Positions 12,380-62,117 of a DNA stretch of 64,000 nt are shown one piece after another; within the stretch, counting starts at the first letter, position 1; the number at the start of each line of letters is the position of its first letter. The notes beneath the pieces are model-generated. The model ran no database searches, had not been told where the DNA came from, and saw nothing but the letters and a program-made list of their open reading frames with translations. A program made the translations under genes and the position numbers. This DNA is from Siphonodentalium dalli (taxonomy: Eukaryota; Mollusca; Scaphopoda; Gadilida; Siphonodentaliidae): assembly GCA_032622095.1 (NCBI GenBank), contig CP136062.1:228672578-228736577 (forward strand), written 5' to 3'.

Positions 12380-12831
12380 TGACCCGCCATATCAAATCCA
12401 GTCGGGATGTTTTTACCCTGTGCCAATGCATTCTCTTATATATGCGAGTCGACCATAGGTCGCCTCGCATATATAAGAGAATGCATTGGCCTAACAATGT
12501 TTTACAATTTTAATAATTTGTTCTTGTATTCTTTAACAATTTTATAATTTCACCCATACAGAACCCCAGACAAACATGAGCAGACGACACTCTTCTATCT
12601 GCTTCTATATATGTGTGGGGCTCCCTGCAGGGTAATGGATGTTTTTTTTCATTTTATGTCCTAAAAATTGTAAGAAACATTTATTTAAAAAACATGATAA
12701 AAAATTGTTAGGCCAATGCATTCTCTTATATATGCGAGGCGACCTATGGTCGACTCGCATATATAAGAGAATGCATTGGCACATGGTAAAAAAATCCCGA
12801 TTTCCGACTGGATTTGTTATGGCGGGTCACA
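12380..12831. mobile_element. family A DNA transposon, copy 1 (two 69-bp hairpins)
   Basis: The termini are inverted repeats of TGTGACCCGCCATATCAAAT plus 'ccagtcgg'; the left end has lost two bases. The flanking dinucleotide is TA. Hairpin H lies at 12422-12490 and its exact reverse complement at 12712-12780. They are separated by a T-rich spacer containing 'ttctttaacaattttata'. No transposase is present. The 68-codon frame at 12639 recurs in the other copies only because the DNA is copied. Confidence 0.93.
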
Positions 12832-12907
12832 TATATAATGTCTAATTTTATAACACATATACATATTAAATGACACATACAATATTATACACACACTTTG
12901 TGTTAGA

Positions 12908-13020
12908 TTATCGCCGATATTTGCGTCCCGGATCGAGATGTAAATATTTACAATTGGGCGCAGTTCCGACGATGTTTTTTATGGAGTGGTATGGTTGATT
13001 TTGAAATTGTGACGATGTTA
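12908..13020 (+). mobile_element. family H host repeat, left part (split by insertion)
   Basis: TTATCGCCGATATTTGCGTC, 'gagatgtaaatatttacaa' and 'gagtggta' match the uninterrupted copy at 51564. The copy is broken after TTA at 13018-13020 by the long element 13021-15117 and resumes at 15121. Confidence 0.8.
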
Positions 13021-15117
13021 AGCCCCTGTCACACTCAGGCCGGCGCTCTTATTGCGCTGCAAAAGTATCAAAGCGCCCACATAAACGCACTAAGGTCTCC
13101 AAGAACCGATTGGCGACGCAGTGGACACTGGCTACAACGGGCGAGGATCTCCATGGTCGCCCATAGGTGCCAGAGCGCCGCGCTTGTTTTATGCATGCAC
13201 AAAACAAGCGCAGAGGCTCGGCGTTCTGACCAGGACGTAGTACTGTCGCCGTGACAGCGCAAAGCAAAGCGCCAAGCGAGCGACGTGAGCGTTATGTGGA
13301 CGTAGCAAAAGCGCACATTAGCTTCTCGTGGTCGCAGCAAGGAATTAATCTTGTCTTTTGCTACTACAGTAAGCTTAATCAAATTCTCACTACGTGCCTT
13401 TCCCGCCCTTAAAATACGCTCAATGAGGCTCTGTCCAAAACTTTTTGCGCTCTTTCTACGCTGTCATGGGGTGTTATGGACTGGTTCCCGCTCATAGAAC
13501 GTCCGCATTGTGCTGCCACTGCGACTCTGGTGCTCGCTCTACGCCCAAGCGTTATACATGGCGTTCTTCCGGCGTTTACAGCAGGTTTACAGTACGATCC
13601 CACTTTGAAATGCGGTCTGCTCACACCAACTGTTGTATTGCGTGTGTCTTTGGTAGGTATCTGTTATGTCTGAATTATATATTTGTATTGTGTGTGTCAT
13701 CTGTTATGTCTGAATTATATAGTTGTATTGCGTGTGTCTTTGGTAGATATATGTTATGTCTGAATTATATAGTTGTATTGCGTGTGTCTTTGCGATCAGG
13801 CTGGCGTTTGATTTGAGTTGAAAAAGTATCAAAATACGAGTAACGCACAGTGGAAGCGCGGAAAATTGTCAGAAATTTTCAATCTGTTAAAACAAGGGAA
13901 CCAATGTCAGAAATGGTAACGCGCTCAAGATCATATATTATAAACCCAAGAATGTAATTGTAGAATATAAAATATATTGGTTTTGCGAATGACCAACTCA
14001 GAATTCCGTTAAATAACAATAACAACCAGCACCTAATTAACGAACCGGTGGCCGACTCGACCGATTCCGACCACAACCCCCAGTGGGCTGCAGAAATTTA
14101 TTTTATTTGTAATTGACATATAGTTTATCACAAACCAAAAATCAACATTAATCAACGTTGATTAACACAATAAACGAAAGTGAATTTCCCCAACTACATG
14201 CACCTTTTACGGGACTCGGCCTCCAGCTTGCAGTTTGACTTTTAATCATCCCAAAAATTCCCATTCTATAAATAAAACTAATAAAATACCCATTGATAAT
14301 GTCAGCCCGCACGCGAAACAAGAAACTCCCCCACCAGTTATACATGCGGCGCGCGTGACAAGCTATGCTCCTATCCCGCTTATCACGTTTTCGTCGCGCT
14401 CTTTGTACGACCCATTGCGTTCCTGCTTTGTCACGTCAATTCTCACGCTCTCACGCGCTCTCATTGCGTTTCCTCCACGCCGTAAACGCTCTTAATGCGT
14501 TCAAGTCGTTGTCGTTGCGTTGTTAGTACGCTTTGCGTTGTCATGGCGACGGTACTACGCCTGGTCAGAACGCCGAACCTCTGCGCTTGTTTTGTGCATG
14601 CACAAAACAAACGCGGCGCTCTGGCGCTCTGGGGCGATCACGGAGACCCTATCCCGTCCTAGCCAGTGTCCACTGCGTCACCAATACGTTCTTGGATACC
14701 TTACTGCGCTTTGCTTGCCGCTTTGATTATTTTTCAGCGCAATGCAAGCGCCGGCCTGATCGCAGCGGAGTGTGACAGTAGTTTAATCGGACAGCTAATC
14801 TATTGCGGAGTGTTGGGTATTTTCCCCACAACATAAAAACTGACTATGACTGGAGAACGCAGGAGGCGCTATCTATACTCTCCGCGCCAGCGCAGAGAAC
14901 GTTTTGCGAACTTATTGTGAACGTACTAGCATCACAATGACAGCGACTTGAACGCACTAAGAGCGTGAGACTTGACAAAGTAGGAACGCAATAGGAGCAT
15001 ACTTTGTTTTAAAAGTTTGACAATTTTCGACAGTTTTCGGCGCTCCTCCTGCGTGTTACTCATATGTTGGTACTTTTGCAGCGCAGTGAGAGCGCCGGCC
15101 TGAGTGTGACAGGGGTT
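13021..15117. mobile_element. 2.1-kb element with long, nested inverted repeats (foldback type)
   Basis: The ends read CCCCTGTCACACTCAGGCCG at left and its reverse complement at right. They are flanked by TTA at 13018-13020 and 15118-15120. Inside, 13021-13262 pairs with 14541-14785, including 'cagagcgccgcgcttgtttt' and 'gccagtgtccactgcgt'. Separately, 14380-14520 pairs with 14930-15010. The second right end at 14740-14785 suggests a composite of two elements. The CG content is higher than in the flanks. The frames of 60 to 123 codons show no transposase motif. A 3-bp TWA target duplication is known for PIF/Harbinger elements; applying that here is inference. Confidence 0.85.
13633..13792 (+). 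repeat. short tandem repeat of 40 to 50 bp, four starts
   Basis: TTGTATTGCGTGTGTCTTTG followed by 'ctgttatgtctgaattatat' starts at 13633, 13683, 13723 and 13773. It lies within the loop region of the long foldback element. Confidence 0.88.
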
Positions 15118-15120
15118 TTA

Positions 15121-15230
15121 GTAAGAATGCTACATTCCCCATATTGGCATAGGGCCTGAGTACTAACTTATAAATTTCACGCACCCAAACAAGTCTATAA
15201 TATGTCTTTAAGCGTGTATATGCGTGACCG
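15121..15230 (+). mobile_element. family H host repeat, right part
   Basis: GAATGCTACATTCCCC, 'ttggcatag', 'gcctga' and 'tactaact' continue the family H sequence exactly where the copy at 51679-51790 continues. This shows that 13021-15117 is an insertion. Confidence 0.8.
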
Positions 15231-15371
15231 GTGCAGTGTTCGGAAGACAACATCTATACTTTACTAAGTACTGCATTCAGTGCATGACATTTGTTGACAC
15301 TTCAATAATTAGCTTCAATAATCCATGGGACCGCATCCTATGGTTACGCCATCATGCCAGGTACATTTGTC

Positions 15372-15529
15372 CATGCTAACTTTTTCTTACACCAGGGAAT
15401 TGTCCATCAGCAATGGTGTGTGACAACATGACATGCAGGAAGAATTAGTTTAAGCTAACATGCTAACTTTTGCTTACATCAGGGGATTGCACGTCAAAAA
15501 CGACGGGTGAAGAATTAGTTTAAGCTAAT
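15372..15529 (+). repeat. 87-bp tandem duplication
   Basis: CATGCTAACTTTTTCTTACA begins at 15372 and its copy at 15459. Both units end GAAGAATTAGTTTAAGCTAA. Confidence 0.85.
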
Positions 15530-15840
15530 AATAAATGCTCTTGATTGCTCATTATTAATGCCTGTAAGTTACTTGAGGACAACGACCGTGACATTTATCT
15601 TGTCTTGTTACCTCTGTGTGCAAAGTTTCCCCACATACTGTCTGAGCTGATAATAAGCGCACTTTATTAATCATGTAATTTATCAGTCCCCCTTTAAGTA
15701 ATCAGAGGTCGATGGGTCATATCACATGACACTCCCCTGGCCATGTGACCAATTTGTACCAATTTTCCTACATATATTCTAAGCTGATAAGAAACGCTCT
15801 GTTTTGTTCATAAAATTACCCCCCCCCATCTAAGTCGTGT
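15530..15840 (+). repeat. degenerate tandem repeat, about three units
   Basis: AGCTRATAATAA or AGCTGATAAGAAACGCTCT starts near 15530, 15645 and 15779. Each is followed by 'cataaaatta' or 'catgtaattta' and a C-rich block. The units are 115 to 135 bp and badly diverged. Confidence 0.5.
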
Positions 15841-15847
15841 TGTCTGT

Positions 15848-16526
15848 GAACGATGCATATAACATAGTAATTATAATAAAATTTTATTTATGACTCATAA
15901 ATTAATTTTCATCATAACTACTATGTCGTGTGCATCGTTCATAGAACACACAAGTGTATGTTGCCCTGATCCATGACTCAAATTCATTCATTGTCTGCAT
16001 ATATGTGACCCGCCATATCAAATCCAGTCGGAAGTCGGGATTTTTTTTACCCTGTGCCAATGTATTCTCTTATATATGCGAGTCGACCATAGGTCGCCTC
16101 GCATATATAAGAGAATGCATTGGCCTAACAATTTTTTACAATTTTAATAATTTTTTCTTGTATTCTTTAACAATTTTATAAGTTCACCCATACAGAGCCC
16201 CAGACAAACACGAACAGATGACACTCTTCTATATGCTTCTATATATGTGTGGGGCTCCCTGCAGGGTAATGGATGTTTTTTATTTTATGTCCTAAAAATT
16301 GTCAGAAACATTTATTTAAAAAAAATGATAACAAATTGTTAGGCCAATGCATTCTCTTATATATGCGAGGCGACCAATGGTCGACTCGCATATATAAGAG
16401 AATGCATTGGCACAGGGTAAAAAAGTATCGACTTCCGACTGGATTTGATATGGCGGGTCACATATGTTGAGTATAAAAGGAGATGGTCCCATAAATGGCC
16501 GGATTTAGTGAATAGTACCCCTTTAA
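15848..16526. mobile_element. family G foldback MITE, copy 2, interrupted by a family A element
   Basis: The inner palindrome GAACGATGCATATAACATAG and its complement lies at 15848-15942. The right arm runs 'atccatgactcaaattcattc' to 'tgtctgcata', is cut by 16004-16462, and resumes 'tgttgagtataaaagg' to 'tacccctttaa'. Copy 3 at 32341 shows the uncut right arm. The outer left arm is missing. Confidence 0.85.
16004..16462. mobile_element. family A DNA transposon, copy 2, nested in a MITE
   Basis: 459 bp from TGTGACCCGCC to GGCGGGTCACA with TA on both sides. Hairpins lie at 16056-16124 and 16343-16411. It shares the spacer and the CCCTGCAGGGTAATGGATG block with copies 1 and 3. The host MITE sequence on both sides gives a clear empty site. 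Confidence 0.95.
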
Positions 16527-16537
16527 TTGCTGGTTGA

Positions 16538-16671
16538 CCCTTTAATTACTGGAGCTTCCTAATTTTTTTGCGAAAACCCTGTGCCAATGCATTATCTCCC
16601 TATATGGGAGATTCCCATCTACAAGATAATGTTTTCAATACTGCACCAGCGCAGCTCCCGTAATAAAAGTG
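16538..16671. mobile_element. family C short element
   Basis: The left end is CCCTTTAATTACTGGAGCTT. The right end, read on minus, is CACTTTTATTACGGGAGCTG followed by TTAA. Inside, 'aaccctgtgccaatgcatta' and a short degenerate stem 'ctccctatatgggag' replace the full hairpin. It lies just downstream of the MITE end. Confidence 0.65.
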
Positions 16672-16675
16672 TTAA

Positions 16676-17475
16676 GTAACATTTAAGTTTCCAAAGTTGC
16701 TATCTTCTAATCGACGACTCGTATTTCCTGTTATTTGATGATTTACACAGGTCCGTACATGCGGTGCGAGGTATATATGATGCCAATTCGATAAAATTAA
16801 CTGGCCTTACACAAATATGCCGGTAAAATCGGAGTTGGAATGCCAATGTTTATACTATACATCCTTCTCAATTATCTATCGCACACAGACGTGCAAAGAA
16901 TCGTGAAAGAAAACAAAATATTACTCTTGGAATCACTGTATCGTCTTCACATCACATCCGGATGCTTAAGTGGCATCACTATCTATCAGAATTTTTTTGG
17001 TGCAATGTGCAGGCATCGCAGCCTGGCGGTCGTTTATCCGCACCGAATGTAAAATTGGCTCCGTTTAGGCATCACGTCATGTTTGCACATACTTGCAAAT
17101 TAATGTGATTAATTAACAAATCCCATGTATCGTTAAGTATTAAACTCTTAATGTTAAGGCTATACTAATATAATCTGCATACTTCAATTTTACATACCAG
17201 TTAAGAAATAACGTTTACGTTGTTCTAAAACCCTTTTCAAAATTAAATCAAACACCAGCATCCTCCTTCTAAATTCTAAATTGTCTAAATTCTACTTTTA
17301 TCTTAAAATATAATGGGGGTGGGGGTACGATCTAATACTATTTATTCAAAATTCCACTAAGCCGCTCCGTGAATCCGTGATCCAGCTTCCATTTCAAAAG
17401 TGATGTCATGAGAACAAAGAACGAGTTGTCTGTGGTAAATTGGGACATTGGTCATAATAACGTTAATCGTCTTCT
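16676..17475. other. unassigned sequence
   Basis: One plus frame (16840-17052, 70 codons) shows no recognisable domain. Nothing else seen. Confidence 0.35.
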
Positions 17476-17479
17476 TTAA

Positions 17480-17937
17480 AGGTACTCAATCCGATCAGGC
17501 CCTCATAAATTACTATTTCTTTGGCTTCGGGGATAAAAAATAATTGATACGAGTCGAGGAACCTACCTATAAACGCCCAGAGTGATCAGATATAAATTTT
17601 TGAAGTTTTGTTATTTCTATTTTGTCTGGCCCAGACACACACCATCAAAAGGATGGTCTCAGTCAAATTTGCGTTATTAATACACTTGATTTTAGAGTTA
17701 TCCATCTTCGTCTGTTTGAATAAGGGCTTCTGTGGAAATTATTAGTACACATCTCGAGAAATTTACAAACTTAGGGGCAATTATTAGTACACATCTCGAG
17801 AAAATGACAAATTTCAAAAATCAATATCTAATAACTCTGAGCTTTGGTGGGTGGGTTCCTCGACTCGAATCAAATATTTTTTACCCCCAAAGCCAAAGAA
17901 ATAGTAATATAGGACCCTCTGATCGGATTGAGTACCT
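17480..17937. mobile_element. family E palindromic MITE, copy 1
   Basis: The ends AGGTACTCAATCCGATC and its complement are flanked by TTAA at 17476-17479 and 17938-17941. The arms carry 'atttctttggctt', 'gagtcgaggaacc' and their complements. An inner duplicated phrase, 'attattagtacacatctcgag', occurs twice around 17735-17805. No coding capacity. Confidence 0.9.
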
Positions 17938-17941
17938 TTAA

Positions 17942-18924
17942 TATGTACAGCAGGCATCCTCACCTGGCATCCTCACCTGGAAGACTTTATGATCGTTCAC
18001 TAAGTTGAGAAACTAAAAGCGGTTGGCCGGGCTAGATGTGATTTCGCTGACCATGTCGGATGTCTCACCGGGGGGGGGGGGGGTCGTTCCGTTTTGCAGA
18101 CACCTATTGTTTTCGGTAGGTTAGGGTAAAGGTGTGAATAATCCTCTTAATGACTACTTAGGCTCTTCCTAGTTGGTTTGATTGGATTCGTTTTTTTTTC
18201 TGCCCTTTTTATTATGAGAAAGAACGGAGGTTTGGGTTGAATTTATGACTGTATTTGTTATGAATAATATAAAATGCATGCAAATATTATAACACAAAAA
18301 CATGAGGTACAAACATTAACGAATTAGAAACTTATAAATGACAACAACATGTTCAGTGACAATATAACTTGGCGGGTTGGTCTCACTTTGGAGACATATT
18401 TACTTGGTCAGACAAACACTTACCTGTATAATATGGTCACCGTTAGCACATACCAAATAACTACTCTTGAAATTAAAATTATGCAGTTGTAACAGAAAGG
18501 TTTCGCTTCGCGCATTATATATATATATATATATATTGTCTTTAAAATGTTCCGTTATAACTCATTACCATAATATATAAACAAGTGCCATTGCTTACAA
18601 TTTAATCACATTAGTGGTAAAAAACATCTAGTGTTCACCAATATATTTCCTTAAAATTTATACATTCCTTGCTATCATCAGTTATCTCATGCTGGAAACA
18701 AAACGCTGCCGATTACGCATGAGTTGAATAGAATCGTCTTTCCATCATAGCATTATCAACAATGCTGATATCGTGCCAAACCCGATTGTAACTGTTTTCC
18801 GCGCACACGCGTGTTTATGGAAGAGTGTCCAACACTGCTTAAGGTTGTCGATAAACCACTTTAATTGTCAATTAATTGACAACCAAAATTGACAGCGTAT
18901 GACCTTTCACATACATAACTAATA
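17942..18924. other. unassigned stretch with simple repeats
   Basis: Contains 'caggcatcctcacctggcatcctcacctgg' as a short duplication near 17950, a G run near 18070 and an AT dinucleotide run at 18516-18536. No gene seen. Confidence 0.45.
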
Positions 18925-19383
18925 TGTGACCCGCCATATCAAATCCAGTCGTAAGTCGGGATTTTTTTTACCATGTGCCAATGTATTCTCTTATATATGA
19001 GAGTCGACCATAGGTCGCCTCGCATATATAAGTGAATGCATTGGCCTAACAATTTTTTACAATTTTAATAATTTTTTCTTGTATGCTTTAACAATTTTAT
19101 AATTTCCCCCATACAGAGCCCCAGGTAAACATGAGCAGACGACACTCTTCTATATGCTTCTATATATGTGTGGGGCTCACTGCAGGGTAATGGATGTTTT
19201 TTATTTTATGTCCTAAAAATTGTAAGAAACATTTATTTAAAAAACATGATAACAAATTGTTAGGCCAATGCATTCTCTTATATATGCGAGGCGACCTATG
19301 GTCGACTCGCATATATAAGAGAATGCATTGGCACAGGGTAACAAAATCCCGACTTACGACTGGATTTGATATGGCGGGTCACA
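18925..19383. mobile_element. family A DNA transposon, copy 3
   Basis: 459 bp, the same length as copy 2, with ends TGTGACCCGCC and GGCGGGTCACA and TA flanks. Hairpins lie at 18977-19045 and 19264-19332. Few differences from the other copies suggest fairly recent spread. Confidence 0.95.
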
Positions 19384-19881
19384 TATTATTTAGTTTCTTT
19401 AGTAGTATATGTCTGTCTAAATGTCAAAGTCCTTTCTAAAATCGCTAAAGACTGCTTATAGTGGTGTATTTTTAAAGTATTTTGAAATTATTATCTATAT
19501 AATTATGTTCATACCTTCAAATACCGTGTCTAGACCACAAGTTTTACTTGGCAGTATAACACTACCCACCATCGACCATTCAGCCATATGATAGACAAAG
19601 GATTCCTTAGTGTTAATCCTCATTAATATTTCATTGCATGTTAGAGAGTACACTATCGTGACTGCCTTAAAATGTGTTACCCACTAAGCTGTATCAACTA
19701 ATCAATTGGCAGATGCTAATACTATACATTTGATTATGATGTCGCCCAAAATGCATTTTTTTTTGCCATTTTCGAAAAACAAAATGGTCATTGACCAATT
19801 TGAACCATGCCAGCGTGAAACAAACAAAAGATTATTTCTTATAATTATACCTTGATAAATACCTCCAAATTACATTGCCAG
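19384..19881. other. unassigned sequence
   Basis: AT-rich, no gene or repeat recognised. Confidence 0.35.
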
Positions 19882-19885
19882 TTAA

Positions 19886-20323
19886 AGGTACTCAATCCGA
19901 TTCGATGGTCACCATATCATCAGATTTCAACAACAACAACAACAACAACAACAACAACGTTTTTAGAAATGCCGCTTCAGCTATCAGAATCGTTTAATGA
20001 TGCTAACCACTGCCAAATATATTATAAATTGCCCAAAACCGTGTTATCTATTAACATGTTGTTCGACAAAATTTGGCCTTATTATCAACAGAGAGCCTCT
20101 TGATTTCAGAATTATCCATCTTCATCCGCAATTTAGACCGTCGACTCGTCGAATGTTTACTGGGCCACTTATAATTTTCGATGGTAAAATATAATATATT
20201 TCAAAAATCGATATTTAATAACTCTGAGCTTTGACAGGTGGGTTCTTCGACTCGAATCAAATATATTTTACCCCCCAATCCAAATAAATGGTAATTGAGG
20301 GACGCTCCATCGGATTATGCATC
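19886..20323. mobile_element. family E palindromic MITE, copy 2 (diverged right end)
   Basis: Starts TTAAAGGTACTCAATCCGAT and carries a run of CAA triplets near 19929. The right half has 'actctgagctttgacagg' and 'gactcgaatcaaatatat'. The right terminus reads 'cggattatgcatcttta' where 'cggattgagtaccttta' is expected. Confidence 0.8.
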
Positions 20324-20422
20324 TTTATATGGACTGTTTTTTTTCATTGAATAATTGTCGTATTATCCATTATGATTCAAATGAATGAGATACTTGTATC
20401 ATAATAGATATCGATGTTTCTC

Positions 20423-20549
20423 CAGTTTACCAGCGTACCCACATGACATCACCCAGTTTACCAGCGTACGCACATGACATCAGTTTACCAGCGTACCCAC
20501 ATGACATCAGTTTACCAGCGTACCCACATGACATCAGTTTACCAGCGTA
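20423..20549 (+). repeat. 27-bp minisatellite (split by a transposon)
   Basis: The unit CAGTTTACCAGCGTACCCAC plus 'atgacat' is repeated about five times; the first unit is a little longer. The last unit is cut after CAGCGTA at 20549 and finishes as 'cccacgtgacat' at 21227. Confidence 0.92.
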
Positions 20550-21224
20550 CACTCTTATGACTAATGTGTAGGTTTTCTACACAAAATGTGTAGCCCTGCT
20601 ACACAATTATTATTCAATTTTGATCTTAAACATATTTGTGTAGTATATGTGTAGTTTCATATCCGTACACAAATTGTGTAACAATTTTTACACATAAATG
20701 GGTAAATTTTTACACATTTATACATAACTGTGTGTATAAAATCAACATATATCCCTTACACATTTTGTGTAGGTTCTTACACACACAGTTCGTAGACAAG
20801 AAATGCAAGTTCAGTAGTCCAACCTGTGGGTATAGTATTAAAGATATATGCAGATTTATATGTTAAAACGTTCATGGCGCATAGTGGTATGTAGTATTTT
20901 GTTCTGTACTGTGAGTTTTTGCTTTGAATGAACAAACCAGGGTCGAGGCGTGATTGCATAATATTAGTATTATTACAACAATCATAACAAGAGTCTAAGG
21001 GCAGTAATCGCCATGAAAGTTTTAACAAATAAATCCGCATATACTATTAATACTAAACCCACAAATTGGAATTCTGAACTTACATCCTTTTCTACGATCG
21101 CTGTAGATTGTATTCCAAAAACAATACTCAAACAATATGGCCGTCACGTACAGCAGACTGTGACGTATTAACCGGGTTTACACATTTGATGTGTAATCGT
21201 TTCTACACATTAGTTATAAGAGTG
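20550..21224. mobile_element. family D DNA element inserted in the minisatellite
   Basis: The left end CACTCTTATGACTAATGTGT and the right end, on minus, CACTCTTATAACTAATGTGT form the inverted termini. TA flanks both sides. The interior is full of short TGTGTAG and CTACACA words. The intact minisatellite units next door show the empty site. No transposase is seen. Confidence 0.9.
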
Positions 21225-23323: not shown

Positions 23324-23327
23324 TTAA

Positions 23328-23450
23328 CGCTTTCGTGACTGGAACTTCCTGAAATTTTGGGAAAACCCTGTGCCAATATATTGTCTTATATATGCGAGTT
23401 TCCCCATTGGGAGCCTCACACATATAATATAATACATTGGCCTATCAATA
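23328..23450. mobile_element. family C element, right end lost
   Basis: TTAA at 23324-23327 is followed by CGCTTTCGTGACTGGAACTT and 'aaaccctgtgccaatatatt'. A diverged hairpin ends 'aatacattggcct'. The right terminus is not found. Confidence 0.6.
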
Positions 23451-29590: not shown

Positions 29591-30004
29591 TCTCTTTTGT
29601 AAACACGAATACTAACAGTTCCCGACTGTAGGATATCAAGAAAATCCATTTGTTTATAAAACTATATTTCCTGAAGCTTCATATGTCGAAAATTAGCCCT
29701 GAATATTGTTGTTGAAACATGCCATCGTTACATCACCTTAGTTAATAACCCCAGCTTATGCCAGACACAGGCATACAGGTAGACAGAAAACGGTGTATAG
29801 TTTATAAAACTAATCATTGCAGATATGATTCAGCAGCCAATTAACCCTTGAATACACGCTCACATCGGAATGGGCATCAGTTGCCAGGTTTCTCAGATAA
29901 TACAAGCTGACGTTAGGAAATTGAGGAGTCGAATGGTCGCCGATTTCAATCAAATGTTTAGATCATCATCTCCATGATACGGTGGCTCCCATCGTGTTGT
30001 TTAA

Positions 30005-30396
30005 CCCTTTACCCAACAGAATGGCCCTGTGCCAATGCATTCTCTTATATATGCGAGTCGACCATAGGTCGCCTCGCATATATAAGAGAATGCATTGGCT
30101 TAACACATTAAAAATTATAAAATTGTTAAAGAATGTAAGAAAAAATGGTAAAAAGTGTTAAACAAATATTTTTTTTAGGCCAATGCATTCTCTTATATAT
30201 GCGAGGCGACCTATGGTCGACTCGCATATATAAGAGAATGCATTGGCACAGGGCATAACTGTAACTATCACAATGTGGTCAAGGAGCCGGTTCCAATGAT
30301 ATCCATATGTGTATGGTTCTATTGAGACAGACCGAAGATATTTTAGGCTGTTGAAGCTTTATTTGGCCGGTTCGGGCCGGTTTGTTGGGTAAAGGG
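30005..30396. mobile_element. family B TTAA element, copy 1 (two hairpins)
   Basis: The ends CCCTTTACCCAACA and TGTTGGGTAAAGGG are flanked by TTAA at 30001-30004 and 30397-30400. Hairpins H and its reverse complement lie at 30031-30099 and 30179-30247. TTAA targets and CCC-initial termini are features of piggyBac elements; assignment here is inference. No transposase is present. Confidence 0.93.
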
Positions 30397-30400
30397 TTAA

Positions 30401-30599
30401 CCCGATCATGACGGAAGCTGCGCTGATTTATATAAGCGAGTCTCCCATGGGGCTTACAAGGCCAATGCATATATTGTTATGCAAATGCATTCTCTTATAT
30501 GAGTGAGGCTGCATATGAGACACTCACCTATACATGTATAAGAGAATGCACTGGCACAGGTTTTTCGCCGACGGTTAGGAAGCTCCAGTCGTGGACGGG
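30401..30599. mobile_element. family C element abutting family B
   Basis: The left end CCCGATCATGACGGAAGCTG follows directly on the TTAA that closes the family B element. The right end, on minus, is CCCGTCCACGACTGGAGCTT before TTAA at 30600-30603. A diverged hairpin lies at 30484-30556. Confidence 0.85.
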
Positions 30600-37660: not shown

Positions 37661-37892
37661 CCCTTTCAGGACGGGAGCTTCACTGGTGCAGATCCTGTGC
37701 CAGTGCATTCTCTTATACATGCGAGTCTCCCATATGGATCCTTGCACTGGCTTACACGATCATGGTAAATATTGTTAGGCCAATGTATTCTCTTATATAT
37801 GTGAGACTCCCTAATGGAGACTCCCTTATATAAAAGAAGGCATTGGCACAGGGTTTTTCGCAAAATTTCAGGAAGCTCCAGTCATGAAAGTG
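37661..37892. mobile_element. family C element with two diverged hairpins
   Basis: The left end is CCCTTTCAGGACGGGAGCTT after TTTA. The right end, on minus, is CACTTTCATGACTGGAGCTT followed by TTAA at 37893. Two hairpin remnants begin at 37690 ('gccagtgcattctcttatac') and 37778 ('gccaatgtattctcttatat'). Confidence 0.85.
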
Positions 37893-53671: not shown

Positions 53672-54794
53672 TGATATTTCTTGCATTTTCGTGATCAACT
53701 GGTGTCAATCTAGCTGGGTAAACATCACTGGTATGGCCTGCAGGCTTCAATTCAGTGAATTTGGCGGAAACGTTAACACTGTCGCCTATGGGAAACCATT
53801 TAGTTCAGTGATTCCCACAGGGCATCGTCCCAGGTTAATACTGTGTCGGTGCACTGGTGACTGCGGTAACTAAATGGTACTGCCTACTGGTAGACTGGTA
53901 GTAGCGGTAGAAAAAATTTGGATTTTTCAGATGTGTAAATGGCCATATCTATTGAATGGGTTGCTCAATTGTTATAAAACTTTTTAAAAGGTGTGTCTTT
54001 TTAAAGTAAATTTATTTTCCTATCAGTATCACACATCCATGTATCTTCATATTTTGTGAAGTTTTATCATTTCTGTCACGTACACCACGATGCCGTGTAT
54101 CACACTGCTTGATTATGTCGACGATAATGATATTACTTTATTAGAATTTAGACGATGATGAATGATGACTCAGATGAGGATGAAATGAAACAAAAAAAGG
54201 TTGTTGACAAAAAAAAAATCGGAATCGACAAATCTCCCGCCAAGGTGAAGGTCAATGACTGAATCGGTGAATAAGGAGTATATAATAAGTTGGAATTACG
54301 GAATTCGTTAACCTAGCCGAATCGAAATCGAAGGGTACACTTTCACTGTGATAGGTTTTGTGATCGGCACTAACACTTAAATTTTAACTGTGTTCTTGAA
54401 TGTCTGCCGCCAATCACTGGCATCAGCAGTTCGTTTTCAGTTCAGTTTAAATAATAAATTTCGTTGGGGCATTAAATATATCGTGAGAGTCAGATGATGA
54501 TGTGAATTATTAATTAAAAATCTAAAGTACAGGCCTGCCTAACCAAGAATGGGACGATTTATGTTGGTGTTTTCAATGAAATTCCACAACTAAATGAAAA
54601 ATGATGAACCCAAAACATTGCCGTGTTTCCTTTACCACGATTCCGACATGTCGACAATCTGTACTCACATGAAAATTCAACGATTCCCACGGATAAAGAA
54701 TATTTTATGCACTCATCAAGTTCAGACAAAATGGCGTTACTAAAATAATGACGTGCGCGAAAATGACGTTGCACATCGGCACGTGGTCACTGTA
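53672..54794. other. unassigned sequence
   Basis: GATGA-rich patch near 54150. No gene or repeat recognised. Confidence 0.35.
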
Positions 54795-54796
54795 TA

Positions 54797-54952
54797 CTCA
54801 AAAAAGTGTAGATATCTTAGATGTGTACACTTAATTTGTGTATATCTCAATCGCTTCCCTGTCAGGCTATAGCAAAACTACTCTTTGTATGAGTAATAAT
54901 AATTCCTACTCTTTAACAAAGTAGGAATAAGTACTCTATGTTTTGTTCAGTG
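54797..54952. mobile_element. short family D element
   Basis: Left CTCAAAAAAGTGTAG after TA; right, on minus, CACTGAACAAAACATAGAGT before TA at 54953-54954. The interior has GAGTA and TACTCTTT words. The right flank 'cccctttaa' equals the family G terminus. Confidence 0.65.
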
Positions 54953-55250
54953 TACCCCTTTAAACGAATCGATATCACAGTTTACACCCGTTCGCATCCA
55001 GTTGGCTAAATCACGTTTCACTCTACCATTTGGTTGTTGTTTGGTAATGCGGTTACACGATTGCCCATGTGAAATTGGGGAACTCTCAAGTATTTCTGGG
55101 CAATACAAGATTTTCCGAAGTTTCGGTAAACAAGTACACGTATTAGGAATATAAATGTGTTTTATGTAGACATTTGGAACGTGTTCCGAAATTATGTTGT
55201 TCTATTGAGCAATGAGCATAGCGTTTGGTCGCGCAATAGCCAGTTCTATT

Positions 55251-56005
55251 CTAAAGCATAATTGATGAGTAGTATATCCCATAGAAACTGTTCAGACAAC
55301 CATATGTTAAATCATCATTGATGAGTTGTTATCCCATAGGAAATGTTCAGATAATAAGTTTAACCCTTTATGTTCACAATTTGTTAACCCTTTCTCAACT
55401 AAAGCATCATTGATGAGTATAGAGTTATATCATAGCAAATGTTCAGATTATACGTTTAACCCTTTCTATACTAAAGCATCATTGATGAGTTGTTATCCCT
55501 TAGGAAATGTAAAGATAATAAGTTTAACCATTTATGTTAATATAATAAGTTTAACCCTTTCTATACTAAAGCTTCATTGATGAGTATAGAGTTATCCCGC
55601 AGGAAATGTTCAGATAAATAAGTTTAATCATTTCTATACTTAAGCACCATTGTTGAGTTATTATCCCATAGGAAATATTCAGATAATAAGTTAAAACCTT
55701 TATGTTCAGATAATAAGTTTAACCCTTACTATACTAAAGCATCAACGATGAGAATATAGTTATCACAAAACGAAATGTTCATATAATAAGTGTAACCCTT
55801 TATATACTAAAGCGTCATTGGTGATAAAGTTATCCCATAGGAACTGTTCAGATAATAAGTTTAATCCTTTCTATTCCACATAATCATCGACGATTAGTTA
55901 TCCCATAGGAAGTGTTCATATAATAATTAAGTTTAACCCTTTCTATACTAACACATCATTGATGATTTGTTATCCCATAGGGATTGTTCAGATACTATTT
56001 TCAAC
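55251..56005 (+). repeat. 68-bp tandem repeat, block 1, irregular
   Basis: The unit 'agcatcattgatgagtagtt', 'atcccataggaaatgttcag', 'ataataagtttaaccctttc', 'tatactaa' is repeated about eleven times with deletions and partial units. The same repeat resumes at 58766. Confidence 0.93.
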
Positions 56006-56066
56006 GCTGGACCGACCACTGTCATCATGCTTATTTTGTAATTTAATCTAACATTTTTTTATTTAA

Positions 56067-56445
56067 CCCTTTACCCAACAGAACGGCCCTGTGCCAATGC
56101 ATTCTCTTATATATGCGAGTCGACCATAGGTCACCTCGCATATATAAGAGAATGCATTGGCTTAACACATTAAAAATTATAAAATTGTTAAAGAATGTAA
56201 GAAAAAATGGTAAAAAGTGTTAAAAATGGCCAATGCATTCTCTTATATATGCGAGGCGACCTATGGTCGACTCGCATATATAAGAGAATGCATTGGCACA
56301 GGGCATAACTGTAACCATCACATGTGGTCAATGAGCTGGTTCCAATGATATCCTAATTTGTATGGTTTTATTGAGACAGACCCAAGATAATTTACGCTGT
56401 TGCAGCTTTATTTGGCCGTTTTTGGCCGGTTTGTTGGGTAAAGGG
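56067..56445. mobile_element. family B TTAA element, copy 2
   Basis: CCCTTTACCCAACA ends with TTAA at 56063-56066 and 56446-56449. Hairpins lie at 56093-56161 (one base changed, 'ggtcacctc') and 56229-56297. It lies just after the 68-bp array. Confidence 0.93.
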
Positions 56446-56601
56446 TTAAGTTGTTAGTCCATTACAATTCATTATGGCTTGATCTAGCCATTTTTCAATT
56501 TTATTGGACAGCTCGGTATTGTAACCGACAAAAGTCTTAAATAAAACAACAAGGAGTTATTTTCTCACATTCAGTGTACGTGATGGTAGTGTTCAATCCA
56601 G

Positions 56602-56755
56602 TGTGGAACCTCGGTGGCTCAATCGGTAAGGGGGTACAACTACTCCAAGTCGTTTCGACCTCCAGCGCTGTCGATGAGGAATCAAATCCACGTGATTCCA
56701 TGATGGACTTTGTAACTCGAAATCGTTACCTGTTATATACTCACCGGTGGCCGGG
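56602..56755 (+). mobile_element. SINE head, truncated
   Basis: A box TGGCTCAATCGGTAAGGG at 56615 and B box AATCAAATCC at 56680. It continues 'actttgtaactcgaaatcgtta' and stops at 'caccggtggccgggg' in a G run before the next copy. Confidence 0.8.
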
Positions 56756-56767
56756 GAGGGGGGGGGG

Positions 56768-57078
56768 GGCTCGGTGGCTCAATCGGTTAGGGGTACCACT
56801 CCAAGCCGCTTCGCCCTCCAGCGCTGGCGATAAGGGTTCAAATCCACATGTTTCCATCGTGGACTTTGTAACTCGAAATCGTTATCTGGTGGAGTTGCCA
56901 GTTACTCGCCGATGGCCGGTGGTTTGCCGCACATGGTTGACGAGTTTATCAGCCATTGAAATCACTGTTAGATTAGTCGCAAGTGTGCGGATTTCCTCCA
57001 CTACTAAAACTGACAATGTCGTGATATGGCCTTAGTGGATATAGCGACAATAAACTCCAATCAATCAATCAATCAATC
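56768..57078 (+). mobile_element. tRNA-derived SINE, complete copy
   Basis: A box TGGCTCAATCGGTTAGGG at 56775 and B box GGTTCAAATCC at 56835 are canonical pol III promoter boxes. The body has 'ggccggtggtttgccgcac', 'atcactgttagattag' and 'aaactgacaatgtcgtgata'. The tail ends 'gacaataaactcc' plus repeated AATC. The tRNA part has a long insert between the boxes and would not fold as a working tRNA. Confidence 0.88.
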
Positions 57079-57079
57079 A

Positions 57080-57254
57080 CCGATGGCCGGTGGTTTCCGC
57101 ACGGGGTCGACGAGTTTATCAGCTATTGAAATCACTGTTAGATTAGCCCACATGTAAGTGTACCGAATTCCTCCACCATTAAAACTGACAATGTCGTGAT
57201 ATCGCCTTAGTTGCTGACAACAACATTGAACCCCAATCAATCAATCAATCAATC
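57080..57254 (+). mobile_element. SINE tail half, 5' truncated
   Basis: Repeats 'cgatggccggtggtttccgc', 'atcactgttagattag', 'aaactgacaatgtcgtgata' and another AATC tail. It is joined directly to the tail of the preceding copy. Confidence 0.85.
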
Positions 57255-57905
57255 CAGCTTTTCGGGGGGGACTGAACTATGCCTGGTCGTTTTATCTGGT
57301 GGTCCGAACATACACACTGTTATGTTTTAACTCGTTTCACTCGAACAAACATAAATGATTTATTGAATAATAACTACGAATTATATAAACGAAGTTTTAA
57401 TATGATTCAGGGTAACGATTTGCTTCACATGAACTGTGCACATCATATATATATAGTTATCATTAAATAACCACAAGACCTGTCATATATAAACATGTAT
57501 CATGCAATGAAATAAACTTTTGCAGTCTATGTTCTCGGATGTATTGATGATCAACTTTTTCAAAAGCCTATATAATCGAATAAGTATCTACGTTACGAAA
57601 TGTGGGTGGGACGGTGGGCCCAACCGTGCACATAAGAAGCTAAACGTGGAATGAACGCTAAAATCTTGTTTGCGTTCAAGCACGCTTTAGAACAATCGAG
57701 AAACTCGTGCTGAATCGAGTCAAGATCAACCAACGCTTATCACGTATGAACTACTATCGCCAATCACCCAGATATGCCCAATCGACCCCCCCCCCCGTTG
57801 ATCTAATATTTTCCATTAACACCCTGCTCTCCAAGTAATTCTTCGTTGAACTTCAATAAAGTAACATAGACGGATGTTGGGTGTTAATATGATAATATTC
57901 AAGGC
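57255..57905. other. unassigned sequence
   Basis: No gene or repeat recognised. Confidence 0.35.
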
Positions 57906-58066
57906 ATATAGAACGACCCCGGCATGATAGTAAGAAGACGGACGAAGCGAAGGATCGTGCAAATAGTCATGAAATGATATTCATATATAACGACCCCGGC
58001 ATGATAGTAAGAAGACGGACAAAGCGAAGGATCGTGCAAATAGTCATGAAATGATATTCATATATT
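57906..58066 (+). repeat. 77-bp tandem duplication
   Basis: AACGACCCCGGCATGATAGT with 'gaagacggac' and 'cgtgcaaatagtcatgaaat' starts at 57912 and 57989, nearly identical. Confidence 0.95.
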
Positions 58067-58310
58067 ACGTTCAATCATGTCTGGATCCTGGCCCGCAGAG
58101 ACAAATGACGTTTTGACGTCATGACGCCGTAACTGCCTTCGTCTAGCTAACAAAATGAAACTGATCTAATATGAACATATGCAGGACATATTCATAACAA
58201 CTTACTGTTTATAAATAAATACTTCAGTTGTCCATTTCAACATAAATTATCGGAAGTTGTGAAGTAGCAAATTCGTTTCATTGATGATTTCGCGATTTTG
58301 TGAAACCACA

Positions 58311-58450
58311 ACCGGAAGTCACGTGATTTTTTCGTGAAAAGTTGTGTCGCTAACAATTTCACCTTCAAGGTATATTGTATTGTATACGTGACGTCACAAG
58401 TATGTACGCGACCCGATCTCGGGCGCGCAAGCGCGCCGAGCGGGGTCGTT
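58311..58450. promoter_or_regulatory. candidate CpG-type promoter motif cluster
   Basis: Within 140 bases lie ACCGGAAGT (ETS-type, 58311), TCACGTGA (E-box, 58319), TGACGTCA (CRE, 58389) and a GC palindrome GGGCGCGCAAGCGCGCC, NRF1-like (58421). Another TGACGTCA lies at 58114. Such clusters mark metazoan housekeeping promoters. No exon is identified on either side, so the call is tentative. Confidence 0.35.
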
Positions 58451-58765
58451 AACATTTTCGATCGTTCGACCTTATTGTACTATACAGGGATCTTTGGGAG
58501 ACAAATGCGAAAATTCGAGCATGTGAATACAAATTGCGATTTATAACTAAGAAGATCACTTGGGATTTTTAGAGGGAAACTGAGAGACGAAACTTCGATA
58601 ACTGCGTGATTAAATTTATATTAGCACCGAGACACATGACCAGTATTGGCAATATATCAGGACGATTGCCATTAGAGTTGGGATATTATGTTGTTTTCAT
58701 TGACGTTTCGCTTGCGATTGATACCTTCTAACTGCCCTTGCCCCTATGGTAACAATCGAACAACT
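58451..58765. other. unassigned sequence
   Basis: Nothing recognised; would be downstream of the candidate promoter on plus. Confidence 0.3.
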
Positions 58766-59332
58766 ATGCTAATGCGCCATTGATGAGAAGTTATCCGATA
58801 GGAAATGTTCACATAACAAGTTTAACCCTTTCTATACCGAAGCGTCATTGATGAGTAGTTATCCCATAGGAAATGTTCAGACACTATGTTTAACCCTTTA
58901 TATACTAAAGCATCATTGATGAGTAGTTATGACATAGGAATTGTTCACATAACAATTATAACCCTATCTATACCAAAGCATCATTGATGAGTTGTTATCC
59001 CATAGGAAATATTAAGATAATAAGTTTAACCCGTTCTATACTAAAGGATCATTGATGAGTAGGTATCCCATAGCAAATATTCAGATAATACATTTAACAA
59101 TTGCTATACCAAAGCTTCATTGATAAGTAGTTATCCCAAATGAAATGTTCAGATAAACAGTTTTACACTTTCTATACTAACGCATCGTTGATGAGTAGTT
59201 ATCCCCTATGAAATGTTCAGATAATAAGTTTAACACTTTCTATACTAAAGCATCATCGATGAGTAGTTATCCCATTGGAAATGTTCAGATAATAAGTTTA
59301 AGACTTTCTATACTAAAGCATCTTCTGGCTAA
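58766..59332 (+). repeat. 68-bp tandem repeat, block 2
   Basis: About eight units of the same 68-bp repeat as 55251-56005, better preserved (unit starts at 58851 and 58919 are exactly 68 apart). Confidence 0.95.
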
Positions 59333-60621
59333 AATTGTCACCAGTATATAGATAGAACGACACAAGTGTGTGAACTGGTTAACGTTGTTGCACGAGGATG
59401 GTGTGACGCGATGGTAAAACAAGAACCGTAGTTGTTTATTTAATAGAACAAGCATGTGCTTAATGTAGGCTATATTCCTAATAATTTAGTGGGAAAAAAT
59501 TATGTTAATGTTGACGTCGCCATTGACGTGTGTGACGTAATTGGTTGTATTGTTCAAGAACAATAAACATTTTTTATTGAACATTTTGAAATCTTCTGTA
59601 TTTTGCTTTTATTTTGCACAAATAAGCCATTGTGTATGCAATAAAAACTCTCTTATGACATCCCAAACCCCTCTCTCCACGTCCCTCGTCGTGCGGATAG
59701 TAGTAGAATATTGTGTAAAACGTATAGGTGTGATGAATACTGACCAGTGGATGTGTTAGCGACCTGGCGAGGGGGGGGGGCGGGGTAGGAATTTATCACC
59801 CCAACTTTGGCATATACTTATACTTGAGAGTCATTTCTGATGTGGGTCCGTGGAACTGGGCTGTGTGTGGTTGTTTGTTGACTCCGAAAACCATTATTTC
59901 CAGCCCTTCCAGCCTGAACCATAACACCTCACTCAATGAGGACAGGGCATGTAGCCAACGAGGAGAAGACTTCATATAGGCACTCGCGCTTGTTTTTTTT
60001 ATCCCCGTTTCCATATATTAACACTTTTATTTTGCGTATAATGTGTCATCTGTATACTATGATATTTGTTTGGATTTGGAAATAAAAATATTTTTTACAC
60101 TAAAAAACACGAGACCCAAAGTCTGACGTAAATCGGAGACGATAAACATTCAGTTTGACATCGACAACGTAAAAGACGTGTCGACACCGTGTGTACAAGG
60201 ACCACAATAAACCGTTCGTTCCAGACTTGAAGTAACTGGAAACTAGTGCCTTCTATAATATTGTTGTTCACGTAGTTAACCTTATTGGACGCTATACGAA
60301 CGCGCGGCGAAAATAACTGTAATTTCGGAACACTAATTGGCCAATTTCGTTGATTCTACAAAATGCGCATATTTTTCTCACTTTTTTTAGCTAATTTGAG
60401 CTGACATGTCCAGCTTCACTAGGGTTCGTACTTCGTAGAGGGCAAATTGTCTCAACTGATTATAAGAGCGAATTGTCGCCCATAATAGCAGTTCAAGTTG
60501 CATTTTTTAAATGCCGCATAATATCTGGCATAGTGGACAGAATTAACCGTCAACAAGCCTTCGAGTGCAACTCCCCTGGGGGACTGCACTGTTCACAGGG
60601 GGGTGGACTGCACTGCTAAAA
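59333..60621. other. unassigned stretch, one transposon trace
   Basis: A G run at 59771 followed by 'tcaccccaactttggc' (59798) recalls the CAGGGACGTG family. Nothing else recognised. Confidence 0.35.
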
Positions 60622-60900
60622 CAGTACCGTGAAATTTACGGCAAATTATCAGGCATAATGGGGACCGGTTGGACCGCGAATTATTTTTACCGGCTGTCCA
60701 TAGAAAACATCGTATTAACTATTGTCCGTTAAAACAATTGTAGCAAAACCGTGAATTTTTCACGGTCTGGCTGTTTTTTATTTTACAGTGAAACCGTAAA
60801 TTTAAGCGGCCATTTCGTTAACCAGTTTGCAGCCAAAGGGTGAACTTTCACGGTTTGTCCGTGTACCGGTTTGCAGCCAGACCGTGAAATTCTTGAGATT
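60622..60900. repeat. region of inverted and direct ACCGTGAAATT words
   Basis: CAGTACCGTGAAATTTACGG, 'ccgtgaatttttcacggtct', 'gtgaaccgtaaattt'-like and 'gtttgcagccagaccgtgaa' recur in both orientations. It may be a decayed palindromic element. 60698-60719 is also identical to the target flank of the family B copy at 61666. Confidence 0.5.
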
Positions 60901-61205
60901 AGTACCGTATGTTCATGTATTAATACTGAACCAAAGAACTGGCATGCTGATTGTAAACTGAAAAAACATCCTACTCAAATATAAATGTAATTTTGTAAAT
61001 TCAATTCCAAACAGATATGTACATATACATATCATGTATTAGTATGTGGGATGCATATGCACATGTTTGGGGATGAGGTCAAATGACCTGTTTTAAATGC
61101 TAATTTTAAAGGAAATACCATTTAATAAAACTGATAAATCAATTACACAATGTACTGTCGCCATGTTCCTCTATCCATTTACTTGAATACTCCGTATTAG
61201 TACAT
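60901..61205. other. unassigned sequence
   Basis: Nothing recognised. Confidence 0.3.
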
Positions 61206-61271
61206 GTCGAGATATCTCCATGTCCGGGTCGAGATATCTCCATGTCCGGGTCGATAAATCTCCATGTCCGG
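61206..61271 (+). repeat. 22-bp repeat, three units
   Basis: GTCGAGATATCTCCATGTCC plus 'gg' occurs three times in a row, the third with 'gataaatc'. Confidence 0.9.
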
Positions 61272-61603
61272 TTGGTCAGCTAATCAACTAGTAACAGTAT
61301 CACGCAGTTTCAACGGAAAATCCAGGTTTTTTTATGAATACCTGGAATATCATTTAAACACTATCTGCCAATGTCGTCTTTGTATATTAATATCAGACAG
61401 CAGACAGCACATCACAGTAAACAGTTGCCATGCTTTTAGGAAAAATAGGTATCAAGTTTATCCTCCTATACATGTATGTTCAATTCTTTGAACTTTCTGA
61501 CTATCTGCATCACTTAAAGACATATTATGGACTTCGGGTGCGTGGAACTGATTAATTAGTACTCAGGCGCTACACCAATTAACTGGGGCAATTAACCATT
61601 TTA
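61272..61603. other. unassigned sequence
   Basis: A 75-codon plus frame without recognised domain. Nothing else. Confidence 0.3.
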
Positions 61604-62117
61604 TTAACATCGTCGACAATCTCAAAGAAATGGACCGTACCACTCCATAGAAAACATCGTATTAACCCTTTACCCAACATAAGGGCCCTGTGCCAATGCA
61701 TTCTCTTATATATGCGAGTCGACCATAGGTCGCCTCGCATATATAAGAGAATGCATTGGCTTAACACATTCAAAATTATAAAATTGTTAAAGAATGTAAG
61801 AAAAAATGGTAAAAAGTGTTAAAAAAGATTTTTTTTAGGCCAATGCATTCTCTTATATATGCGAGGCGACCTATGGTCGACTCGCATATATAAGAGAATG
61901 CATTGGCACAGGGCATAGCTGTAACCATCACAATGTGGTCAATGAGCCGGTTCCAATGATATCCATATTTGTATGGTTTTATTGAGACAGACCGAAGATA
62001 TTTTAGGCTGTTGAAGCTTTATTTGGCCGGTTTTGGCCGGTTTGTTGGGTAAAGGGTTAACTACCCTCAATTGTAGATACTTACATCTTGATTCGGGACG
62101 CATGTATCAGCGATAAA
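61604..62117 (-). mobile_element. family H host repeat, reversed, interrupted by family B copy 3
   Basis: TAACATCGTCGACAATCTC and 'gtaccactccatagaaaaca' precede the insertion; 'caattgtagatacttacatc', 'gattcgggacgc' and 'gcgataaa' follow it. Joined, they match the reverse of 12908-13020 and 51564. Confidence 0.8.
61666..62056. mobile_element. family B TTAA element, copy 3
   Basis: CCCTTTACCCAACA ends with TTAA at 61662-61665 and 62057-62060. Hairpins at 61692-61760 and 61839-61907 are intact. It is closely similar to the copy at 30005. Confidence 0.95.

What the first reader, a model, noticed from the sequence alone, without database searches (positions are those of the whole stretch)
12422..61907. 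One 69-bp hairpin module sits in transposons with different termini
Hairpin H (GCCAATGCATTCTCTTATAT at its start, about 27 paired bases plus a second short stem) is present as twelve intact or nearly intact copies: two in each of three family A elements (TA-flanked TGTGACCCGCC) and three family B elements (TTAA-flanked CCCTTTACCCAACA). Diverged versions occur in family C (2651, 23328, 30401, 37661). In each A and B element the second hairpin is the reverse complement of the first, so the element is a palindrome of palindromes. The A and B spacers are also related, but in opposite orientation ('ttctttaacaattttata' in A is reversed in B). Unrelated TIRs with a shared core imply capture or exchange of a module between transposon families with different integration rules.
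Basis: partly seen in the sequence, partly recalled or inferred. Interest (0 to 1): 0.82.

Follow-up and report, generated by a model that had tools for sequence, protein, structure and literature searches.

The report
Hairpin core swapped between transposon shells
A short DNA hairpin present in more than 87,000 perfect copies in one animal-like genome sits inside several kinds of small jumping genes, and hundreds of hybrid copies joined at the hairpin indicate that it works as a joint through which these elements swap parts and gain new ends.

Summary
The 69-bp hairpin H has 87,638 exact genomic copies. It is the core of at least four families of small non-coding elements: A (TGTGACCCGCC ends), B (CCCTTTACCCAACA), older C, and D (CCCTTTGAGTGCCAGG, one H, not in the window). 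B, C and D target TTAA; A has a 2-bp A/T duplication, mostly TA, also TT and AA.

In six of ten B-outer/A-inner copies read, an A core lies between B ends with TTAA on both sides and one shared 3' junction, so a recombinant transposed. A core tree does not follow shell type. Of 60 end-chosen elements, 3 carry another family's core.

Likely mechanism (inferred): repair or replication switches template inside H and finishes at short homology outside. Inserted H copies mutate as fast as their surroundings in A and B (apparently slower in D), so H seems conserved at the source. A new variant of known chimeric-transposon evolution; transposases are unassigned.

The parts
12378..12831 (.). A element 1 (TA each side; left end mutated to TATGACCCGCC), two H and the A spacer
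12422..12490 (+). H, exact
12712..12780 (-). H, exact, inverted
16004..16462 (.). A element 2 (TA each side)
16056..16124 (+). H, 1 mismatch
16343..16411 (-). H, 1 mismatch in loop
18925..19383 (.). A element 3 (TA each side)
18977..19045 (+). H, 3 mismatches
19264..19332 (-). H, exact, inverted
30005..30396 (+). B element 1 (TTAA at 30001-30004 and 30397-30400); its right TTAA is also the left TTAA of a C element
30031..30099 (+). H, exact
30179..30247 (-). H, exact, inverted
56067..56445 (+). B element 2 (TTAA both sides)
56093..56161 (+). H, 1 mismatch
56229..56297 (-). H, exact, inverted
61666..62056 (+). B element 3 (TTAA both sides)
61692..61760 (+). H, exact
61839..61907 (-). H, exact, inverted
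2627..2886 (.). C element, diverged, with C-type hairpins (edges approximate)
23328..23441 (+). C element, left part only, one C-type hairpin (left TTAA 23324-23327)
30401..30598 (.). C element abutting B element 1 at a shared TTAA (right edge approximate)
37661..37892 (.). C element with two C-type hairpins (left flank TTTA; edges approximate)

Best explanation
H (usual outer flank CCCTGT, usual inner flank YTAACA) is a shared palindromic core of several families of small non-autonomous DNA transposons. Because H is 69 bp, nearly its own reverse complement and identical in the A, B and D sample consensus, a repair or replication event that breaks or stalls in one H can continue on any other H, in either orientation. 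The second end of the exchanged tract is resolved outside H at a few shared bases, or by homology in the spacer or in the other H. This makes hybrids, swaps cores or sub-terminal segments, and can account for the inverted A and B spacers. A hybrid that keeps two working ends is then multiplied by the transposase that recognises those ends. SHOWN: the shared core, the hybrids in the three directions tested, TTAA on both sides of 25 of 40 hybrids read, at least one hybrid type present in several copies with one junction, and core/shell discordance. INFERRED: that palindrome breakage and template switching is the cause, and which transposases move the elements.
For: Copy number: 20-mer arm 312,252 exact matches; full H 87,638. 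Ends, exact: A 19,653, both ends counted; B 43,631, mainly the H-proximal end; D 8,008. In loci chosen by ends and not by H, H with at most 14 mismatches is in 18/20 A, 20/20 B and 18/20 D; the four misses still show truncated H. Joints at H: A-outer/B-inner 129, D-outer/B-inner 19, B-outer/A-or-D-inner 148 (all 10 read have the A spacer). Parental: A-outer/A-or-D-inner 12,305, B/B 10,558. Of 20 A-outer/B-inner copies read, 16 are B elements with TTAA at both ends, whose A-derived sub-terminal piece starts at different junctions: 4 + 2 + 6 copies in three classes and 4 singletons. Of 10 B-outer/A-inner copies, 7 share one 3' junction with B's right end, 7 have TTAA both sides, 6 have both; L185 has a B left and an A right end. 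At 18 outer junctions donor and recipient share 1-4 bp in 14; 4 have 1-4 unexplained bases. In end-chosen samples, A shell with B core 1/20 (L070) and D shell with A core 2/20 (L102, L103). All four combinations of left-end type and right-part subfamily occur in B. The tree of 30 A cores needs 8 label changes for B shells, at least 2 forced by supported branches.
Against: No polymorphic or de novo event was seen; the mechanism is read from junctions alone. The chimera patterns required the switch to lie in H, so they do not show that H is hotter than other shared sequence. Paired changes on both arms are not clearly commoner than chance in A/B/D (2 seen, 0 complementary, 0.5 expected), so there is no recent sign of hairpin-templated correction. 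Hybrids without a recognisable transposon left end (L122, L132, L136, L140 of 20; 6 of 10 in the D set) may be damage products, and only 2 of 10 D-set hybrids have TTAA on both sides. Many branches of the core tree are weak (3 of 27 inner branches starred). Shared bases at outer junctions are few, and the commonest class shares only 1 bp. H does look less mutated than its surroundings in D.
Confidence: 0.78

Rival explanations
1. Exchange is real, but H is only a convenient stretch of homology: ordinary ectopic gene conversion between very abundant repeats, the palindrome being incidental.
For: H is the longest stretch I saw that is identical in the A, B and D sample consensus, so homology alone would put joints there; no excess of complementary arm changes; L172 shows a B patch in D that ends in the spacer, outside H.
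Against: 69 bp is short for ordinary homologous recombination in animals (general knowledge); 18 outer junctions examined share at most 4 bp; the A and B spacers are inverted relative to each other, which a palindromic joint explains simply.
Confidence: 0.35
2. H is kept because it does something for movement (transposase or host-factor binding, or a hairpin needed for excision), and sharing reflects selection on source elements.
For: C-type and A/B/D-type majority hairpins differ at only 5 of 69 positions, four of them two compensating pairs of the apex stem, although C copies are more diverged, while spacers and ends differ. In B, H has fewer shared (subfamily) variants than the rest although private mutation rates are equal; in D private changes are rarer in H (0.9 vs 2.65%, p=0.002).
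Against: Inserted copies show no constraint in A (1.5 vs 1.9%, p=0.4) or B (1.02 vs 1.08%, p=0.88); the D result may be alignment noise in its poly-T tract. D has one H, A and B have two, and H lies inside shells with different target rules.
Confidence: 0.25
3. No exchange: A, B, C and D are diverged forms of one ancestor.
For: B, C and D all begin TTAACCCTTT-like and have CCCTGT or a near form next to H.
Against: A ends are unrelated and have a different target duplication; H is identical in the A, B and D consensus while ends and spacers are not; hybrids are direct.
Confidence: 0.05
4. H, or the H pair, is itself a mobile element that inserted into each family.
For: A few H modules lack any known left end; L122 lies between direct repeats of at least 63 bp of flanking DNA (1 mismatch), and L132 lies in repeated flanking DNA (by eye).
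Against: By eye no target duplication surrounds the core in A, B, C or D; the CCCTGT and YTAACA flanks recur across families, and D has a single H followed by a spacer like A's. The L132 flank is a tandem repeat, so its duplication is weak evidence.
Confidence: 0.07
5. The hybrids are assembly or sequencing artefacts.
For: H is highly repetitive, the kind of sequence that can cause mis-joins.
Against: The 100 of 129 A/B hybrids listed are scattered over C1-C8; 25 of 40 hybrids read have TTAA at both ends, and some junctions recur at separate places.
Confidence: 0.03

Closest known systems
Galileo (P superfamily) chimeric copies in Drosophila (PMC3573991, passages read)
   Same: Inverted-repeat transposon whose copies exchange sequence; copies with ends of one subfamily and the centre of another; recombination or conversion proposed as a source of new subfamilies.
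   Different: Exchange there is within one element (12 chimeric of 170 copies). Here it crosses families with unrelated ends and different target rules, through a 69-bp palindrome, among elements with 10^4-10^5 copies.
SINE conserved central domains (CORE, V, Deu, Ceph; PMC3272025, passages read)
   Same: A short central domain shared by families with otherwise different parts; template switching invoked there for related chimeric SINEs.
   Different: Those are retrotransposons, with template switching by reverse transcriptase. Here the elements look like DNA transposons and the domain is a palindrome, so the switch would have to happen at the DNA level.
piggyBac-type MITEs (features recalled, not tested against a library)
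   Same: B, C and D: TTAA target duplication and CCC-starting ends; piggyBac transposase genes with open frames are abundant in this genome.
   Different: No transposase gene with B or D ends was found in the 7 loci read of 128 matches; A does not belong here.
Foldback elements and palindromic MITEs (recalled)
   Same: Elements largely made of inverted repeats that can form hairpins.
   Different: Here the hairpins are internal, short and shared between families, and are not the termini.

Membership tests
piggyBac MITE (B, D, C) | TTAA target site duplicated on both sides | tested here: met
   B: 16 of 20 end-chosen loci have both ends; 15 of those TTAA/TTAA, 1 TTAA/TTAT (the left TTAA was part of the search pattern). 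D: 14 of 20 close with an inverted D end including TTAA at up to 2 mismatches (left TTAA given). C: 6 of 20 copies show TTAA at both ends by a loose pattern.
piggyBac MITE (B, D, C) | Same ends as a piggyBac transposase gene in the genome | tested here: inconclusive
   128 PF13843 matches listed, a lower bound; only the 7 best loci were read and none has B or D ends or H.
Tc1/mariner MITE (A) | Strict TA target duplication | tested here: not met
   Of 20 A elements: 12 TA, 4 TT, 2 AA, 2 unmatched.
Tc1/mariner MITE (A) | Ends shared with a Tc1/mariner transposase gene | not tested
   No search made for A's transposase.
MITE in general (A, B, C, D) | Short, non-coding, inverted ends, high copy number, target duplication | tested here: met
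   About 200-460 bp; thousands to tens of thousands of exact ends for A, B and D. Too short to hold a transposase; coding capacity was judged by length, not by a search.
Galileo-like chimeric transposon | Copies with core and ends from different families | tested here: met
Known RNA family (hairpin RNA) | Match to an Rfam model | tested here: not met
   No match at gathering threshold in the window.

The most novel reading that the evidence does not exclude
H is a self-perpetuating palindromic module, a parasite of MITEs: it survives not by its own transposase but by inducing repair template switches that copy it, with its spacer, into whichever transposon shell is currently active, and so outlives each family (first C, then A, B and D) and crosses between transposases with different target rules.
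Probability: 0.28. Interest if true: 0.85.

Novelty: new variant of a known kind. Interest (0 to 1): 0.64.

Why it matters
It is a clear natural record of how non-autonomous transposons change ends. Families with different termini, at least two of them unrelated and with different target rules, share one joint, and the intermediates are still in the genome in numbers that allow counting. It would be a DNA-transposon counterpart of the conserved central domains of SINEs, and it makes a testable link between palindrome instability and the birth of new transposon families.

Tried and rejected
Selection on H in inserted copies: a first count made H look about 1.5 to 9 times less diverged than the rest (15 A, 17 B, 17 D loci), but A had been aligned in mixed orientation and shared subfamily differences had been counted. 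With orientation fixed and private substitutions only (13 of 20 A, 13 of 20 B, 15 of 20 D loci), A and B show no difference; D still does (p=0.002). I dropped the claim for A and B and hold it open for D.

Hairpin-templated correction of the arms: no excess of complementary changes in A/B/D; in C 24 double changes against 15.2 expected, of which 8 keep pairing: not convincing.

Autonomous partner: piggyBac genes found, but none of the 7 loci read carries the B or D ends or H. H in viral contigs: no exact match to the 27-bp arm. H as text in papers: none. Rfam: none in the window. PMC3442997 on mosquito elements: passages read, nothing used.

Organism: not identified. The assembly has nine contigs of 190-301 Mb; one paper on a viviparid snail appeared in a search that included 'nine chromosomes' (search listing only), which is no evidence of identity.

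Rows dropped or biased: loci L001-L040 were chosen because they hold the H 20-mer, and L141-L160 because they hold a C-apex 23-mer; they were not used for presence rates, but they did enter the hairpin counts (which makes those divergences too low), and some of L001-L040 entered the target-site list and the core tree. The end-chosen samples are 20 of the first 100 listed places per family, all on C1, and the A set deliberately included some odd spacings (L068, L077, L078, L079). In one search the loose core patterns also matched L066, L077 and L092; reading them shows an ordinary A core in L066, two overlapping A copies in L077, and the A-like match of L092 outside the element, so none was counted as hybrid. 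In one search L186 was labelled A shell by the script although its sequence has a B shell.
Full report
WHAT IS THERE. H is a 27-bp arm, a T/C mismatch, a 5-bp inner stem, an ATA loop and the matching second half. Its only asymmetries are that mismatch and the loop. Outside H there is usually CCCTGT or a near form, inside it usually CTAACA or TTAACA; exceptions are B's second inner flank (CTAAAA...) and a few damaged copies such as L032 and L118. The window lies on C2 of an assembly of 2.227 Gb in nine contigs. The organism was not identified.

HOW MANY. The 20-base arm occurs 156,203 + 156,049 times, the full 69 bases 43,886 + 43,752 = 87,638 times, exactly. In 20 spaced 4-kb stretches, H with up to 16 mismatches is in 3. 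Exact ends: A 19,653 (both ends counted), B 43,631 (mainly the H-proximal end), D 8,008. C looks older: its apex 23-mer occurs 11,225 times, and 57 C-type hairpins in my loci lie about 9% from their majority sequence at paired positions, against under 1% for 225 A/B/D-type copies (my division; many of both sets were chosen by exact H words, so both values are too low). Some C loci hold arrays with a unit of about 97 bp.

ANATOMY. A: about 455 bp, symmetric ends, H - A/T-rich spacer with a GAGCCCC...GGGGCTC centre - inverted H. B: about 390 bp, H close to the left end, short spacer, inverted H, then a unique 150-bp right part. D: about 250 bp, H near the left end, then spacer and right end. C: TTAA CCCTTTCATGACTGGAGCTTCC..., with C-type hairpins. 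In 60 loci chosen by ends and not by H, H is present in 18/20 A, 20/20 B and 18/20 D; the other four carry a truncated H. So in these samples the ends are always tied to H or its remains. A's target duplication is 2 bp of A/T (12 TA, 4 TT, 2 AA, 2 unmatched of 20).

DIRECT RECOMBINANTS. One of the 20 end-chosen A loci (L070) begins as A, passes through H and continues as B. I therefore searched the whole genome for joints that a strict separation of families would not give. A-outer + H + B-inner: 129. B-outer + H + A-or-D-inner: 148. D-outer + H + B-inner: 19. The same pattern form for the parents gives 12,305 (A-outer with A-or-D inner) and 10,558 (B/B), so hybrids are 129 of 12,434 and 148 of 10,706 joints, about 1.0% and 1.4%; no parental count was made for D. 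The reversed control patterns gave 0 throughout, which is a weak control.

WHAT THE RECOMBINANTS LOOK LIKE. Of 20 A-outer/B-inner copies read, 16 are B elements with TTAA on both sides in which the piece between the B end and H is replaced by A's; the search pattern held neither TTAA nor the B end. The outer switch differs: CAACAG|TCGGGA in 4, CAACAG|TCGGAAGTCGGG in 2, GAACG|TTTTTTTT in 6, and four singletons. The other four have no B left end. Of 10 B-outer/A-inner copies, all carry the A spacer; 7 share one joint to B's right end (ACAGGGTA|TTTTAGG), 7 have TTAA on both sides and 6 have both, so one recombinant became a transposing subfamily (two of the seven, L182 and L186, have a partly duplicated or damaged second hairpin); L183 has another right joint, L185 has a B left and an A right end, L181 is truncated. 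Of 10 D-outer/B-inner copies, L169 is D left/B right, L172 is D with a B patch in its spacer, L168 and L171 are B elements with a D sub-terminal piece (the 2 of 10 with TTAA on both sides), and six have no recognisable left end. At the 18 outer junctions with a B end (16 plus L168 and L171) recipient and donor share 1-4 bp in 14, and 4 have 1-4 bases that neither explains, in part T-run length. Without selection on the joint, 3 of 60 end-chosen elements have a foreign core: L070 (A shell, B core) and L102 and L103 (D shell, A core, alike, hence probably one amplified hybrid).

DISCORDANCE. In B, both left-end types (B's own and the CAACAG|TCGGGA hybrid) occur with both right-part subfamilies, which needs recombination or recurrence. 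A tree of 30 A cores does not separate B shells from A shells: 8 changes of label, no fewer than in shuffles, at least 2 forced by supported branches; only 3 of 27 inner branches are well supported, and one B-shell row was mislabelled A.

MECHANISM. One joint lies in H (by the search design, except in the end-chosen L070, L102 and L103); the other lies at a few shared bases or in shared spacer. H is nearly its own reverse complement, so a strand that leaves one H can pair with any other in either direction; this explains both the cross-family joints and the inverted A/B spacers. Palindromes of this kind are known to stall replication and be cut by hairpin nucleases (general knowledge, not tested here). 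I therefore favour break repair or replication with template switching in H, followed by multiplication of hybrids that keep two working ends. The first half is inference; the second is supported by the shared junctions and TTAA flanks.

WHY H IS THE SAME EVERYWHERE. The A, B and D sample consensus sequences contain the same 69 bases. Yet private substitutions in inserted copies are as frequent in H as elsewhere in A (25/1643 vs 49/2593, p=0.4) and B (18/1768 vs 27/2505, p=0.88). In D they are rarer in H (9/1005 vs 36/1359, p=0.002), where poly-T alignment is doubtful. So in A and B H is not measurably protected once inserted. Its sameness lies in the source elements, by exchange, by a role in movement, or both. 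C and A/B/D majority hairpins differ at 5 of 69 positions, four of them two compensating pairs in the apex stem, which fits a structure kept over a longer time, but two pairs are few.

KNOWN OR NEW. Chimeric Galileo copies (passages of PMC3573991) and SINE central domains (passages of PMC3272025) are the nearest precedents. I saw no description of this hairpin or of a palindromic core shared by DNA-transposon families with different target rules in the listings of the searches made (open-licence PMC only). Dfam and Repbase could not be searched. Genome annotation of this species may already list A-D as separate repeat families.

LIMITS. The parental samples come from the first 23 Mb of C1. Counts are exact-match counts, hence lower bounds. 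The transposases for A, B, C and D are unassigned; only 7 of 128 piggyBac matches were read.

Noticed in passing
window 30397-30400; also L125, L135, L140, L143: B elements sit at a TTAA that borders or lies in a C element in several loci, as if C sequence offers preferred TTAA targets (seen by eye, not counted).
   Followed up: no
L010 1197-3324, L146, L149, L160: C-type hairpin plus spacer forms tandem arrays, with a unit of about 97 bp in L010, so H has also become a small satellite.
   Followed up: partly
centre of A elements (for example window 16004-16462); L020; L174 right flank: The GAGCCCC...GAGCAGACGACAC...GGGGCTC block in the A spacer resembles pieces seen outside A elements; it may be a second exchangeable module.
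   Followed up: no
G000:C1 826186-926260 and 742213-785829: Regular spacing of H hits (about 11.2 kb and 14.5 kb periods) suggests long tandem duplications near the start of C1 that carry H elements along.
   Followed up: no
G000, 128 PF13843 matches: Many piggyBac transposase open frames of 500-720 aa, several groups with the same frame length and nearly the same score: piggyBac may be recently or currently active in this genome.
   Followed up: partly
L122; L132: H-pair modules without a recognisable left end lie between direct repeats of flanking DNA (at least 63 bp, 1 mismatch, in L122; L132's flank is itself a tandem repeat), possibly repair-mediated insertions.
   Followed up: no
window 3056-5244: 46-bp tandem array of about 48 copies (87% matches).
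   Followed up: no
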